Source: Xanthomonas sontii
GTDB lineage: Bacteria; Pseudomonadota; Gammaproteobacteria; Xanthomonadales; Xanthomonadaceae
NCBI RefSeq assembly: GCF_040529055.1
Contig: NZ_CP132342.1
Location: 2,416,001 to 2,480,000 of the forward strand
Reading direction: 5' to 3'
Length of the DNA stretch: 64,000 bases
In this document: in pieces, positions 15,949 to 18,497 of the stretch
How positions within the stretch are numbered: the first letter of the stretch is position 1
Layout of the letters: the number at the start of each line of letters is the position of its first letter
Translations under genes and position numbers: made by a program
The notes under the pieces: generated by a model
The model's input: the letters and a program-made list of their open reading frames with translations, nothing else
The model's database searches: none
Told to the model about the DNA's origin: nothing

Positions 15949-17156
15949 GGGCACCTCTAAAAACCCCGCCTTTGGCATCATTGGTCTGGAGAACACGCCG
16001 AGGACGCCACGATGATCAGCCTGTTTGCCGGCCACGAACGCGAAGCCAAGCGGCAGCAGATCGGCGATCCTCTGGCTCTGCTGTCACGGCATATCGACTT
16101 TGCCGGGATTGCTCACGTCGTAGACGCGAAGCTGTCCTTGGGTACTGGCAAGCGCGGTGGCCGTCCGGCTTGGCCGACGCAGGTGATGATCAAGCTGCTG
16201 CTGTTGCAGCAGTTGTACAACCTCTCCGACGATGCGCTGGAGTACCAGGTGCTGGATCGGCGCAGCTTCCAGCAATTCCTCGGACTGGAACACAGCGGCA
16301 AGGTGCCCGACGCCAAGACGATCTGGGTGTGGCGCGAACGGCTCAAGACCAAGGATCTGATGGGCGACATCAGCGCGGCGATCGGTGAGCAATTGCAACG
16401 TGCCGGGTTCATTGCCCGCGGCGGTCAGATCATCGACGCCAGCATCGTCAGCGCTCCGATCCAGCGCAACACGCGCGAAGAGAACGCGCAGATCAAGCAG
16501 GGCGATGACGTCGGCCAGGACTGGAGCGATGCCAAGCGTGCGCAGAAGGATATGCAGGCACGTTGGACCAGGAAGCATGGGGTGGCGTTCTACGGCTACA
16601 AGCTGCACGCCAGCACGGACCGTCGCTGGGGCTTCATCCGCCGCTACGACGTGAGCGCGGCCAACGTGCACGACAGCCGTCACTTCGAGCAGGTGCTGGA
16701 CCCGGACAACACCGGCCGCACGGTATGGGCCGATAGCGGGTATGCCGATGCAGCGCGGGAAGCAGACCTGAAAAGGCGTGGTTACCGCCCCGCGATCCAA
16801 CATCAAGGGCATGCGCGCAAGCCCTTGAGCGAGGCAGCAAAGCGCCGGAACCGTCGAATTGCCAAGGATCGGGTGTTCGGCGAGCACCCGTTTGCGCGCT
16901 TGGCCCAACAAGGCGGCAAGTTCGTACGCTGCATCGGCTTGGCGCGGGCAAAGGTGGTGATCGGGCTGAAGGTCGCCAGCCATAACGTGATGCGGCTGGC
17001 ACGGCTACAGGAGCGGGCCATGGCGCCAGCGTGATCGGCTGAGGTAGCCCAGCGGCCACCTCAGCCTCCCAACCACCACGATCAGGCGCCGCTCTGGTGC
17101 CGTTGCGACAGATGCTACCCCTGGCTCCAGGTCGTGGCAGGTTGTTCGAGGTGCCC
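15949..17156 (+). mobile_element. IS5-family insertion sequence, complete
   Basis: A 1208-base element with imperfect terminal inverted repeats: the left end reads GGGCACCTCTAAAAACC and the complement of the right end GGGCACCTCGAACAACC, two mismatches in 17. A four-base target duplication TGAA flanks it (15945-15948 and 17157-17160). Removing the element rebuilds GGGACTGAAGTCCC followed by TCCCAC, identical to the hairpin arm at 58578-58604, so it inserted into a copy of that repeat. One intact transposase gene fills it. Confidence 0.92.
16012..17034 (+). CDS. IS5-family transposase
   Basis: A 340-residue DDE transposase. It begins MISLFAGHEREAKRQQIGD, has the N-terminal DUF772-type region (MIKLLLLQQLYNLSDDALEYQ), the first catalytic Asp in QIIDASIVSAP, the second in VWADSGYADAAREADL and the final Glu within a Y-x2-R-like region near KRRNRRIAKDRVFGEHPF. 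No frameshift or stop interrupts it, so it is probably active. It occupies almost the whole element between the inverted repeats. Confidence 0.93.
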   Translation: MISLFAGHEREAKRQQIGDPLALLSRHIDFAGIAHVVDAKLSLGTGKRGGRPAWPTQVMIKLLLLQQLYNLSDDALEYQVLDRRSFQQFLGLEHSGKVPDAKTIWVWRERLKTKDLMGDISAAIGEQLQRAGFIARGGQIIDASIVSAPIQRNTREENAQIKQGDDVGQDWSDAKRAQKDMQARWTRKHGVAFYGYKLHASTDRRWGFIRRYDVSAANVHDSRHFEQVLDPDNTGRTVWADSGYADAAREADLKRRGYRPAIQHQGHARKPLSEAAKRRNRRIAKDRVFGEHPFARLAQQGGKFVRCIGLARAKVVIGLKVASHNVMRLARLQERAMAPA

Positions 17157-17222: not shown

Positions 17223-17302
17223 GTAGGCGCGGTTGCAGCCGCGACCGGGGATTCCCGGTAATGCCAGTCGCGGCTGATCCCAAACAGGCGACAAGAGCCG
17301 CT
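17223..17302 (-). repeat. REP-like hairpin repeat, long form, split by the IS110 element
   Basis: On the minus strand this matches the long-form repeat at 40233-40317 nearly throughout (GGGATCAGCCGCGAC, TTACCGGGAAT and flanks). Its outer GTAGGAG end is missing here but is found as CTCCTACGG at 18449-18457 on the other side of the IS110 element, showing that one repeat was split by the insertion. Confidence 0.82.
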
Positions 17303-17331
17303 TGTGTCAAATAAGGGTCTATCGTTGTAGG

Positions 17332-17490
17332 TGAGAGCGGAGTGCGGCAGGCCGTTTAGCCGCAGTGCCAGCAAGCACGAGTAGGAGTCAGCGCCGCCGC
17401 ACTCCGGTTCTCCTGCCTGACAAGCCCGAACAGTTGCCCGAGTGACGAGCTCGAACTCCACAAGCATGGGCATCGGCAGGAGCGCTCTCG
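17332..17490 (+). ncRNA. Predicted IS110 bridge RNA with target and donor guide loops
   Basis: Two stem-loops can be drawn. Stem 1 pairs 17339-17348 with 17396-17405 (10 perfect pairs) and encloses AGCCGC at 17358-17363, identical to the left target 17296-17301, and GTAGGAG at 17381-17387, the exact complement of the right target CTCCTAC at 18449-18455. Stem 2 pairs 17410-17417 with 17475-17482 (8 perfect pairs) and encloses ACAGTTG at 17430-17436, identical to the element's right end 18441-18447, and CACAAG at 17459-17464, the complement of its left end CTTGTG at 17301-17306. This matches the target-binding and donor-binding loops known for IS110 bridge RNAs. RNA ends are estimated. Confidence 0.8.
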
Positions 17491-17517
17491 TCCATGAGTC
17501 TACTGCGGAGAACGTCT

Positions 17518-18441
17518 ATGCGGCGCCATGTCGGGATCGATGTATCCAAGGCTGAGCTGGTCATTCATGTCCTGCCGGACGAGCAGGCCTGGACCCAGCC
17601 CAATACGCCACAGGGGCAGCGTGCGCTGGCCCAACGTCTGGCTGGGATGGACTGCGAGCGGATCGTGCTGGAAGCCAGTGGCGGCTACGAACATGCCGTG
17701 CTGCAGGTGCTCCGAGAGGCGGACCTGCCGGCAGTGCGGATGGCCGCCGATCGTCCGCGCAAGCTCGCCCAGGCCTTGGGCCTGCATGCCAAGACCGATG
17801 CCCTGGACGCGCGCCTGCTGGCCATCGCCGCCCAGCACATCCCGACCACCCCCACGCCCGTGGTGCCCGGGCACCAGCAGTCTCTTCGCGAACTGCTGGA
17901 CCTGCGTGCCACCCTGGTGGGCCAGCGCGATGCCCATCGGCGGCGCTTGGAACACATTACCAGCGCCAAGGCGCAACACCGCTGCCGAGAGGTGATCGCC
18001 CTGCTGAACCAGCAGATCCAGACGTTGACGCAGGAGATCGAGCAGCAGGGCAAGACCTGCTCGAGCCTACCCAAGGTGCCTGGGCTCGGGACGATCCTGC
18101 GCGCGGTTCTGGCCGCGCGGCTGCCAGAGCTGGGCACGCTGCCGCCACGCAAGCTCGCTGCCCTGGTCGGGCTGGCCCCGTTCAATCACGACAGCGGTTG
18201 CTGGAAAGGCCAGCGCCGCATCAAAGGCGGACGTGCCGACGTGCGGCGCGTGCTGTACATGGCCACCTGGGCCAGCATCCGCGCCAAATCCCCCTTGGCC
18301 AACACCTACGCACGTCTGCGCGCAGCGGGCAAGCCGGCCAAGGTCGCCATCGTCGCCTGCATGCACAAGTTCCTGCGCTGGCTCAATGCCATCGCGCGCG
18401 ATCAGGCCCCGTACGCTCCTCCTGTCATCGCAGGTGCATGA
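17518..18441 (+). CDS. IS110-family recombinase (DEDD transposase)
   Basis: A 307-residue recombinase. The N-terminal RuvC-like domain carries the DEDD tetrad Asp8 (GIDVSKAEL), Glu52 (LEASGGYE), Asp94 and Asp97 (KTDALDAR). A coiled-coil-like region around 125-185 precedes the C-terminal Tnp domain with PGLGTILRAVLA and the presumed nucleophile Ser227 (FNHDSGCWKG). It would cut and rejoin donor and target strands guided by the bridge RNA. ATG 17518 is chosen over 17494 because GGAG at 17507-17510 is ideally spaced for it, while the only purine tract before 17494 is part of the donor-loop stem. The frame is intact. Confidence 0.92.
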   Translation: MRRHVGIDVSKAELVIHVLPDEQAWTQPNTPQGQRALAQRLAGMDCERIVLEASGGYEHAVLQVLREADLPAVRMAADRPRKLAQALGLHAKTDALDARLLAIAAQHIPTTPTPVVPGHQQSLRELLDLRATLVGQRDAHRRRLEHITSAKAQHRCREVIALLNQQIQTLTQEIEQQGKTCSSLPKVPGLGTILRAVLAARLPELGTLPPRKLAALVGLAPFNHDSGCWKGQRRIKGGRADVRRVLYMATWASIRAKSPLANTYARLRAAGKPAKVAIVACMHKFLRWLNAIARDQAPYAPPVIAGA

Positions 18442-18497
18442 CAGTTGACTCCTACGGCGGTTTGTGTTGCCTGCGCAACGCGGACGCGCGCTACGCG

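What the first reader, a model, noticed from the sequence alone, without database searches (positions are those of the whole stretch)
17301..18450. IS110 element whose bridge RNA and four guides can be read directly
Seen: the left non-coding end folds into two perfect-stem loops. Loop 1 carries AGCCGC (identical to the left target) and GTAGGAG (complement of the right target). Loop 2 carries ACAGTTG (identical to the right end of the element) and CACAAG (complement of its left end). Known: IS110 recombinases such as IS621 use a bridge RNA with exactly one target loop and one donor loop, each split into left and right guides around a CT core. All four guides agreeing in the right order is hard to explain by chance. 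The encoded recombinase has an intact DEDD tetrad and serine, so the system may be active.
Basis: partly seen in the sequence, partly recalled or inferred. Interest (0 to 1): 0.88.

Follow-up and report, generated by a model that had tools for sequence, protein, structure and literature searches.

The report
REP-hunting IS110 with readable bridge RNA
This 1.15-kb jumping gene, in what is likely a Xanthomonas genome, carries beside its recombinase gene a stretch predicted to make a two-loop guide RNA whose guides match its own ends and the repeated REP-like sequence it sits in; across dozens of related copies guides and target sites match more often than chance, so the RNA likely chooses where it lands.

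Summary
17301-18450 is a complete IS110-group element (CT...CT), one of three near-identical copies in this genome; a sister genome has the empty site, cut scarlessly at a 2-bp CT. All 62 insertions compared in 11 same-genus genomes lie in one REP-like motif, AGYCG or AACCG | CTCCYAC. The left-end fold is conserved: covariance-model matches in 59 of 297 family genomes, 97% of helix cells paired, 26 of 40 pairs with double-sided changes. Guides follow targets: against each genome's own REP variants, 52 of 62 insertions match exactly (37.5 expected, P 7e-11). In one genome 4 of 6 copies sit in a variant that is 2% of its REPs but is what its guide spells. Distant relatives carry guides for a Stenotrophomonas REP or an attC-like site and sit there. 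Limits: G019 matches 1 of 3; the handshake base fits 29 of 29 distinct RNAs, but this may be one evolutionary change; target class changes only three times on the recombinase tree; transcription and activity are untested. Known kind (IS621-type bridge RNA); new are the member, the REP-subtype choice and REP/attC retargeting in one lineage.

The parts
17223..17302 (.). left part of the REP pair (BIME-like) that was split: GTAGGCGCGGTTGCAGCCGCGAC...GTCGCGGCTGATCCCAAACAGGCGACAAGAGCCGCT; left target AGCCG|CT
   Evidence: sequence; unsplit in sister genome G010, locus L135
17301..17302 (+). left CT core
   Evidence: same position in the 62 compared insertions
17303..17308 (+). right donor (TGTGTC after CT); 3-bp GTC is the inverted copy of GAC at 18440-18442
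   Evidence: sequence; its beginning with CT is complementary to RDG CACAAG
17320..17325 (+). predicted -10 box TATCGT, 17 nt after TTGACT that would form at the closed-circle junction (18445-18450)
   Evidence: 9 of 12 matches; as good in 1% of 300 mononucleotide shuffles for the window copy; no promoter found in the linear element
17330..17489 (+). predicted bridge RNA body covered by covariance model R1
17338..17406 (+). target-binding loop (stem 17338-17348/17396-17406)
   Evidence: helix 2: 11 of 13 pairs with double-sided change
17358..17363 (+). left target guide AGCCGC
   Evidence: identical to left target; varies with target in relatives
17381..17387 (+). right target guide GTAGGAG (reads like the REP head)
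   Evidence: complement of right target CTCCTAC
17388..17389 (+). predicted handshake guide UC, complementary to donor A18448, G18447
   Evidence: first base complementary to donor position 7 in 29 of 29 distinct RNAs, possibly one evolutionary change
17410..17482 (+). donor-binding loop (outer stem CTCCTGCC / GGCAGGAG, inner GCCC/GGGC)
   Evidence: helices 4-6
17430..17436 (+). left donor guide ACAGTTG
   Evidence: identical to right end 18441-18447
17459..17464 (+). right donor guide CACAAG
   Evidence: complement of left end CTTGTG; UAAG where relatives' left end is CTTA
17465..17466 (+). predicted second handshake guide CA; C complements target position 7 (G), A does not complement position 6 (C)
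   Evidence: first base complementary in 20 of 29 distinct RNAs
17518..18441 (+). IS110 recombinase, 308 codons with stop (alternative start 17494, 315 aa); D8, E52, D94, D97, S226
   Evidence: (NF033542, above cut-off); the X. sacchari annotation spans 924 nt in the same place
18442..18450 (+). very short right end: left donor CAGTTG, A at position 7, CT core
18449..18455 (.). right target CTCCTAC (REP head read on the reverse strand)
   Evidence: continuous with the left target in the empty site L135

Best explanation
The element is an IS110-group insertion sequence whose left end is predicted to be transcribed as a bridge RNA that likely directs the DEDD-serine recombinase to REP-like repeats. 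Inferred cycle, by analogy with IS621: the element leaves as a circle; the closed junction forms a predicted promoter (TTGACT-17-TATCGT) that would drive the RNA; the donor loop would pair with the circle's own junction (CAGTTG / CTTGTG) and the target loop with a REP, where RTG GUAGGAG reads the REP head and LTG AGCCGC the adjoining half-stem; the recombinase would exchange strands at CT, helped by a handshake base (U17388 to donor A18448). Shown here from sequence: ends, copies, scarless empty site, conserved fold, guide-target matching beyond chance. Inferred or untested: transcription, binding, catalysis.
For: Recombinase: NF033542 192 bits over a cut-off of 140; nearest solved relatives ISCro4 and IS621, catalytic residues aligned. 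Copies: 3 in the own genome; 58 full-length in 10 same-genus genomes, the own one included (fetched). Empty site in G010: joined flanks align at 90% over 498 nt through the junction...AGCCGCTCCTACGG.... Target supply: 73 GAAGYCGCTCCYAC sites in the own genome, 62-679 in the 11 others counted, reversed control 0-1. Guide choice: 52 of 62 exact vs 37.5 expected, P 7e-11; G-U allowed 59 of 62 vs 46.4, P 6e-6; G003 4 of 6 in AGTCGC|CTCCTAC, which is 8 of its 408 REPs, P 2e-6. Fold: 97.1% of 1859 cells paired vs 76.6% shuffled and 34-51% slid. Retargeting: 23 distinct loops, own-target score 12.96 of 14 vs 10.98 permuted, 0 of 20000 as high. Handshake base 29 of 29. Junction promoter 9 of 12 in 10 of 11 genus elements scanned.
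Against: No RNA, circle or reaction was observed. MFE and RNAalifold pair the guides with each other. G019 copies match in 1 of 3 and L096 has a right mismatch; some distant copies fit the left guide poorly (L116 4 of 7; L121, L122, L126 4.5 of 7). The second handshake fails in 9 of 29. The junction promoter is no better than shuffles in the TTG|CT-type relatives, G018 of the same genus included. Kinship is not corrected: on the recombinase tree the target class changes only 3 times, and all TTGA|CT elements in it lie on one side of one branch, so the handshake and right-donor agreement may each be a single change. The family rows were picked with an ACAGTTG right end, so constancy of that donor half is by construction. 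A4 was fitted to the model's structure. At the one G003 site checked, the orthologous sites of relatives do not carry the AGTCGC variant, so its presence before insertion is not shown.
Confidence: 0.9

Rival explanations
1. The recombinase itself, or the cruciform shape of the REP, selects the site, and the guide-like matches are relics without a role.
For: All 62 genus insertions share one REP-like motif, and related elements share both loop and target class by descent.
Against: Shape alone does not explain why G003 copies favour the 2% REP sub-variant that their guide spells (4 of 6), or why other relatives lie in attC-like sites that their guides spell.
Confidence: 0.05
2. The rare-variant placement in G003 comes from exchange of flanks between IS copies, or from later change of the REP beside the element, not from guided choice.
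For: Several copies per genome make exchange possible. The orthologous sites of L098 in relatives read AAGCCG (G014, G015, G017) or AAACCG (G005) on the left, not AGTCG.
Against: The reciprocal hybrid is absent among the six. L098's two flanks are collinear with one orthologous stretch in G005 (left 1-196 at 1303-1496, right from 1501), and its left REP half keeps a matching palindrome CGACTGAAGTCG. L099-L101 were not tested this way.
Confidence: 0.08
3. The element is a decayed copy that no longer moves.
For: Some relatives have short frames (L059, L076, L078, L103).
Against: The window copy has an intact frame and ends; the three own copies differ at two bases, and a copy with one differing base sits in another REP-like site in X. 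sacchari R1.
Confidence: 0.1
4. Chance similarity of short guide strings.
For: Single guides are 6-7 nt.
Against: Same geometry, stems and guide order in relatives from several genera, with covariation.
Confidence: 0.005

Closest known systems
IS621 (E. coli), IS110 group, bridge RNA (PMC11208160 and PMC11208158; passages seen)
   Same: DEDD + serine recombinase, long left end with two loops, split guides around CT, handshake guides, junction promoter, REP as target
   Different: Distantly related recombinase (69.6 bits); RTG match of 7 nt against 4 in IS621; base after LTG (A17364) does not match core T; donor guide does not match donor position 7
ISCro4 transposase (PDB 9t56)
   Same: closest solved sequence (76.5 bits)
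   Different: its RNA and target were not examined here
ISEc11/ISXne4 and ISEc21/ISMch6 (seekRNA paper PMC11187229; abstract and passages seen)
   Same: natural redirection by changed guide segments
   Different: here the lineage spans REP, another REP and attC-like targets, with several insertions for many guides
ISPpu9, ISPpu10, ISPa11, ISRm19 (PMC1525189; passages seen)
   Same: listed there as IS110 family with all copies in REPs
   Different: Pseudomonas and Sinorhizobium; the word Xanthomonas does not occur in that paper's held main text

Membership tests
IS110 group (IS621-type) | DEDD RuvC-like domain plus Tnp domain with catalytic serine | tested here: met
   PF01548 and PF02371 over cut-off; residues aligned to IS621
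IS110 group (IS621-type) | long left end, short right end | tested here: met
   217 nt from the core to the probable start codon, 9 nt after the stop, cores included
IS110 group (IS621-type) | left-end RNA with target loop then donor loop | tested here: met
   covarying helices, CM matches in relatives; the RNA itself was not observed
IS110 group (IS621-type) | four guides matching target and donor around a CT core | tested here: met
IS110 group (IS621-type) | handshake guides | tested here: inconclusive
   first 29 of 29, second 20 of 29; window copy 3 of 4 bases; the first may be one evolutionary change
IS110 group (IS621-type) | scarless insertion with no duplication beyond the core | tested here: met
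   empty site L135
IS110 group (IS621-type) | promoter formed at the circle junction | tested here: inconclusive
   9 of 12 consensus bases in 10 of 11 genus elements scanned, 6-9 in other relatives; prediction only
IS110 group (IS621-type) | RNA-dependent recombination | not testable with these tools
   needs an assay
IS1111 group | long non-coding region downstream of the gene and 7-17 bp subterminal inverted repeats | tested here: not met
   9-nt right end; only TGAC/GTCA, 4 bp, around the donor

The most novel reading that the evidence does not exclude
A REP-tracking parasite: the target loop is split into a near-fixed half that reads the RAYT-type REP head (GTRGGAG) and an evolvable half that follows the REP stem. 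Single-base guide changes, including a C-to-U change that adds G-U wobble, shift which REP sub-population is used inside one genome, and loop replacement has moved the lineage between Xanthomonas REPs, Stenotrophomonas REPs and attC-like sites.
Probability: 0.5. Interest if true: 0.62.

Novelty: new member of a known kind. Interest (0 to 1): 0.5.

Why it matters
It gives a natural experiment on bridge-RNA specificity. Each of 12 genomes counted offers 62 to 679 near-identical candidate sites in a few sub-variants, and the insertions show which sub-variant a given guide ended up in. That lets mismatch, wobble and perhaps handshake rules, measured so far for example with IS621 in E. coli, be read from evolution. 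It also suggests how a REP-dwelling IS can follow its host's repeats, and offers a compact (308-codon), naturally diversified set of recombinase-guide pairs.

Tried and rejected
Rfam: no family reaches threshold in the window, so the fold was modelled here. A scan of named genome contigs gave 4 loci of 35-44% identity, not used further. Free folding and RNAalifold pair guides with each other; six such pairs were removed before counting helices. Considered and rejected: CM hits of 82-85 nt (G038, G020, G230) and 67 nt (G195) as one-loop RNAs; one stretch fetched for each of these four genomes stops at a contig end. No promoter or terminator in the linear element. One PF01797 gene was found in the own genome; near it lie GTGGGAGGGACTTCAGTCCCGAC-type repeats, a different REP class, so the RAYT of the target class is not identified.

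Rows dropped: genus statistics use 62 of 64 fetched loci (L102 right end not found, L103 left end missing). The test without L088, whose left target is AACCG, gives P 8e-11 and 6e-6. Family rows: 35 of 58 loci fetched were given, the other 23 being cut by contig ends; with 20 earlier loci and 11 representatives they make 66. Of these 46 were kept and 20 dropped for lack of a recognised core or of an ACAGTTG(A)CT right end; one more loop was dropped for masked letters, leaving 23. Scripts stopped on errors; coordinates printed by 35 and the table printed by 38 were used, the tests come. Junction shuffles keep only base composition.

Literature: PMC searches (IS110 with bridge RNA, seekRNA, REP, attC, Xanthomonas, handshake; one search listed 12 of 23 papers, 15 of 16, 14 of 15) showed no title or abstract start describing this element; subscription papers and ISfinder were not searchable.

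Full report
What is there. The stretch 17301-18450 begins and ends with CT and holds one recombinase gene, 217 nt from the left core to the probable start codon and 9 nt after the stop. The protein matches IS110 models; among solved proteins it is nearest to ISCro4 and IS621, with the DEDD residues and serine aligned. The start is probably 17518, since the ATG at 17494 is not kept in relatives and the 99.9% identical copy in Xanthomonas sacchari R1 is annotated over the matching 924 nt.

Copies and the empty site. The own genome holds three copies, two identical and the window's differing from them at two bases. Twenty same-genus genomes were searched; 17 have some match, and 58 full-length copies lie in 10 of them. 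These, four related copies in G018 and two partial ones (L102, L103) were fetched. In the 62 insertions with both ends the right flank is CTCCYAC in 62, the left AGYCG in 61 and AACCG in one. In G010 the ortholog of the right-flank gene is preceded by the unsplit site ...GACAAGAGCCGCTCCTACGGCGGTTTGTG..., and joined window flanks align to it at 90% over 498 nt. So insertion used a single CT. In G006, G007, G009, G011 and G013 the printed stretch before the ortholog also shows an unsplit REP-like pair. The X. sacchari R1 copy, one base different, sits in another such site, AAACCG|CTCCTAC.

What the target is. GTAGGAGCGGCTTCAGCCGCGAC-type palindromes have the form described for Xanthomonas REPs: GTRG head, GA, then a palindrome (PMC2817692, passages); the exact class here is not in that paper's passages. 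GAAGYCGCTCCYAC occurs 73 times in the own genome and 62-679 times in the other 11 counted, against 0-1 for the reversed pattern. RTG has the sequence of the REP head; LTG is half of the stem. Some flanks (L042, L057, L059) are poor palindromes.

Do guides predict sites? Two guide positions were tested, at which the REPs form class AGCCGC|CTCCTAC, class AGTCGC|CTCCCAC and two hybrids. Each insertion was compared with its genome's own class frequencies. Exact pairing at both positions: 52 of 62, expected 37.5, P 7e-11; with G-U allowed 59 of 62, expected 46.4, P 6e-6. G003's RNA reads AGUCGC and GUAGGAG, the rare hybrid; 4 of 6 copies sit in it though it is 8 of 408 sites (P 2e-6). L098, one of the four, has flanks collinear with an orthologous stretch in G005, which speaks against flank exchange there; but relatives' orthologous sites read AAGCCG or AAACCG, not AGTCG, so the variant's presence before insertion is not shown. 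Against the reading: G019 copies match in 1 of 3, L096 has a right mismatch, and on their own only G000, G003 and G011 reach P below 0.05. Frequencies count only sites preceded by GA.

The fold and distant relatives. A model from 19 left ends of the genus matched in 59 of 297 family genomes and 22 of 54 genera, the window's genus included. On 48 distinct aligned sequences 97.1% of helix cells pair, 26 of 40 pairs show changes on both sides, and slid controls fall to 34-51%; the alignment was fitted to the model, which favours it. Four G281 copies carry GUGGAUC and GAAGUAG and sit at GTGGAT|CTACT, whose surroundings, read backwards, are the published Stenotrophomonas REP AGTAGATCCACGCCATGCGTGGAT (PMC2817692). 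Seventeen copies carry UAAC(G/A)CCU and UAA(U/C)UC(A/G)G and sit at TAAC(G/A)C|CTGA(A/G)TTA, which I recognise from memory as the end of an attC site; that was not tested. In G148 guide and target share TAACAC in three of three copies. With 23 distinct loops the own-target score is 12.96 of 14, against 10.98 (sd 0.31) for permuted targets, 0 of 20000 as high. The recombinase tree (33 proteins) needs three changes of target class, so class switches are few independent events and the permutation does not correct for that.

Donor side and handshake. Family rows were selected by an ACAGTTG(A)CT right end, so its constancy is by construction; in the genus L058, L059 and L087 deviate. The right donor begins CTTG or CTTA and the RDG ends CAAG or UAAG accordingly in the 29 distinct RNAs. 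Donor position 7 is A or G as TTGA|CT or TTG|CT ends the element, and the base after RTG is U or C accordingly in 29 of 29 (Fisher P 3e-8). On the tree all TTGA|CT elements lie on one side of one branch, so this may be one change; the P value overstates it. It does match the handshake guide proposed for IS621 (PMC11208158, passages). The second handshake is complementary in 20 of 29; the attC-type elements fail. Closing the circle would place TTGACT 17 nt before TATCGT, 9 of 12 consensus bases, in 10 of 11 genus elements scanned (G018's scores 7); L124 also scores 9, the remaining relatives 6-7, no better than shuffles.

Mechanism and verdict. By close analogy to IS621, a circle-borne promoter would make the RNA, its donor loop would bind the junction, its target loop a REP, and the recombinase would exchange strands at CT. 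Sequence evidence for target recognition is strong, for donor recognition and handshake moderate; transcription, complex formation and reaction are untested. The element is a new member of a known kind. Its added value is the natural test of guide specificity among REP sub-variants and the REP/attC retargeting in one lineage; natural redirection itself is already reported for other pairs (PMC11187229, passages).

Noticed in passing
window 16012-17034: An IS5-family transposase gene (NF033581, 239 bits) ends 266 bp left of the element, so two unrelated ISs are neighbours here.
   Followed up: no
L001, L002 (own genome): Two copies of a second IS110 recombinase with a 369-aa open frame; its guides and target were not read.
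   Followed up: no
L130-L132, L160-L165, L168, L171, L172, L174, L186, L202-L204: Seventeen IS110-group copies at attC-like sites with matching guides; the attC-targeting ISs named in the seekRNA paper's passages are IS1111-type.
   Followed up: partly
L133, L191-L194, L181 (G239, G172): Elements whose right guide CGGGAGAG matches CTCTCCCG; the left target is masked or unclear, so that half is unresolved.
   Followed up: partly
G019 loci L057-L059, L103: Many truncated matches and a changed donor guide (CCGTTG); this genome seems to hold a decaying population.
   Followed up: partly
L212: The only PF01797 hit of the own genome lies among GTGGGAGGGACTTCAGTCCC-type repeats, a second REP class sharing head and centre with the target class.
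   Followed up: partly
L044-L050 (G010): Seven of eight G010 copies carry LTG AGCCGU, replacing the core-pairing C by U (a G-U pair with the core), yet all seven sit at AGCCG|CT.
   Followed up: no
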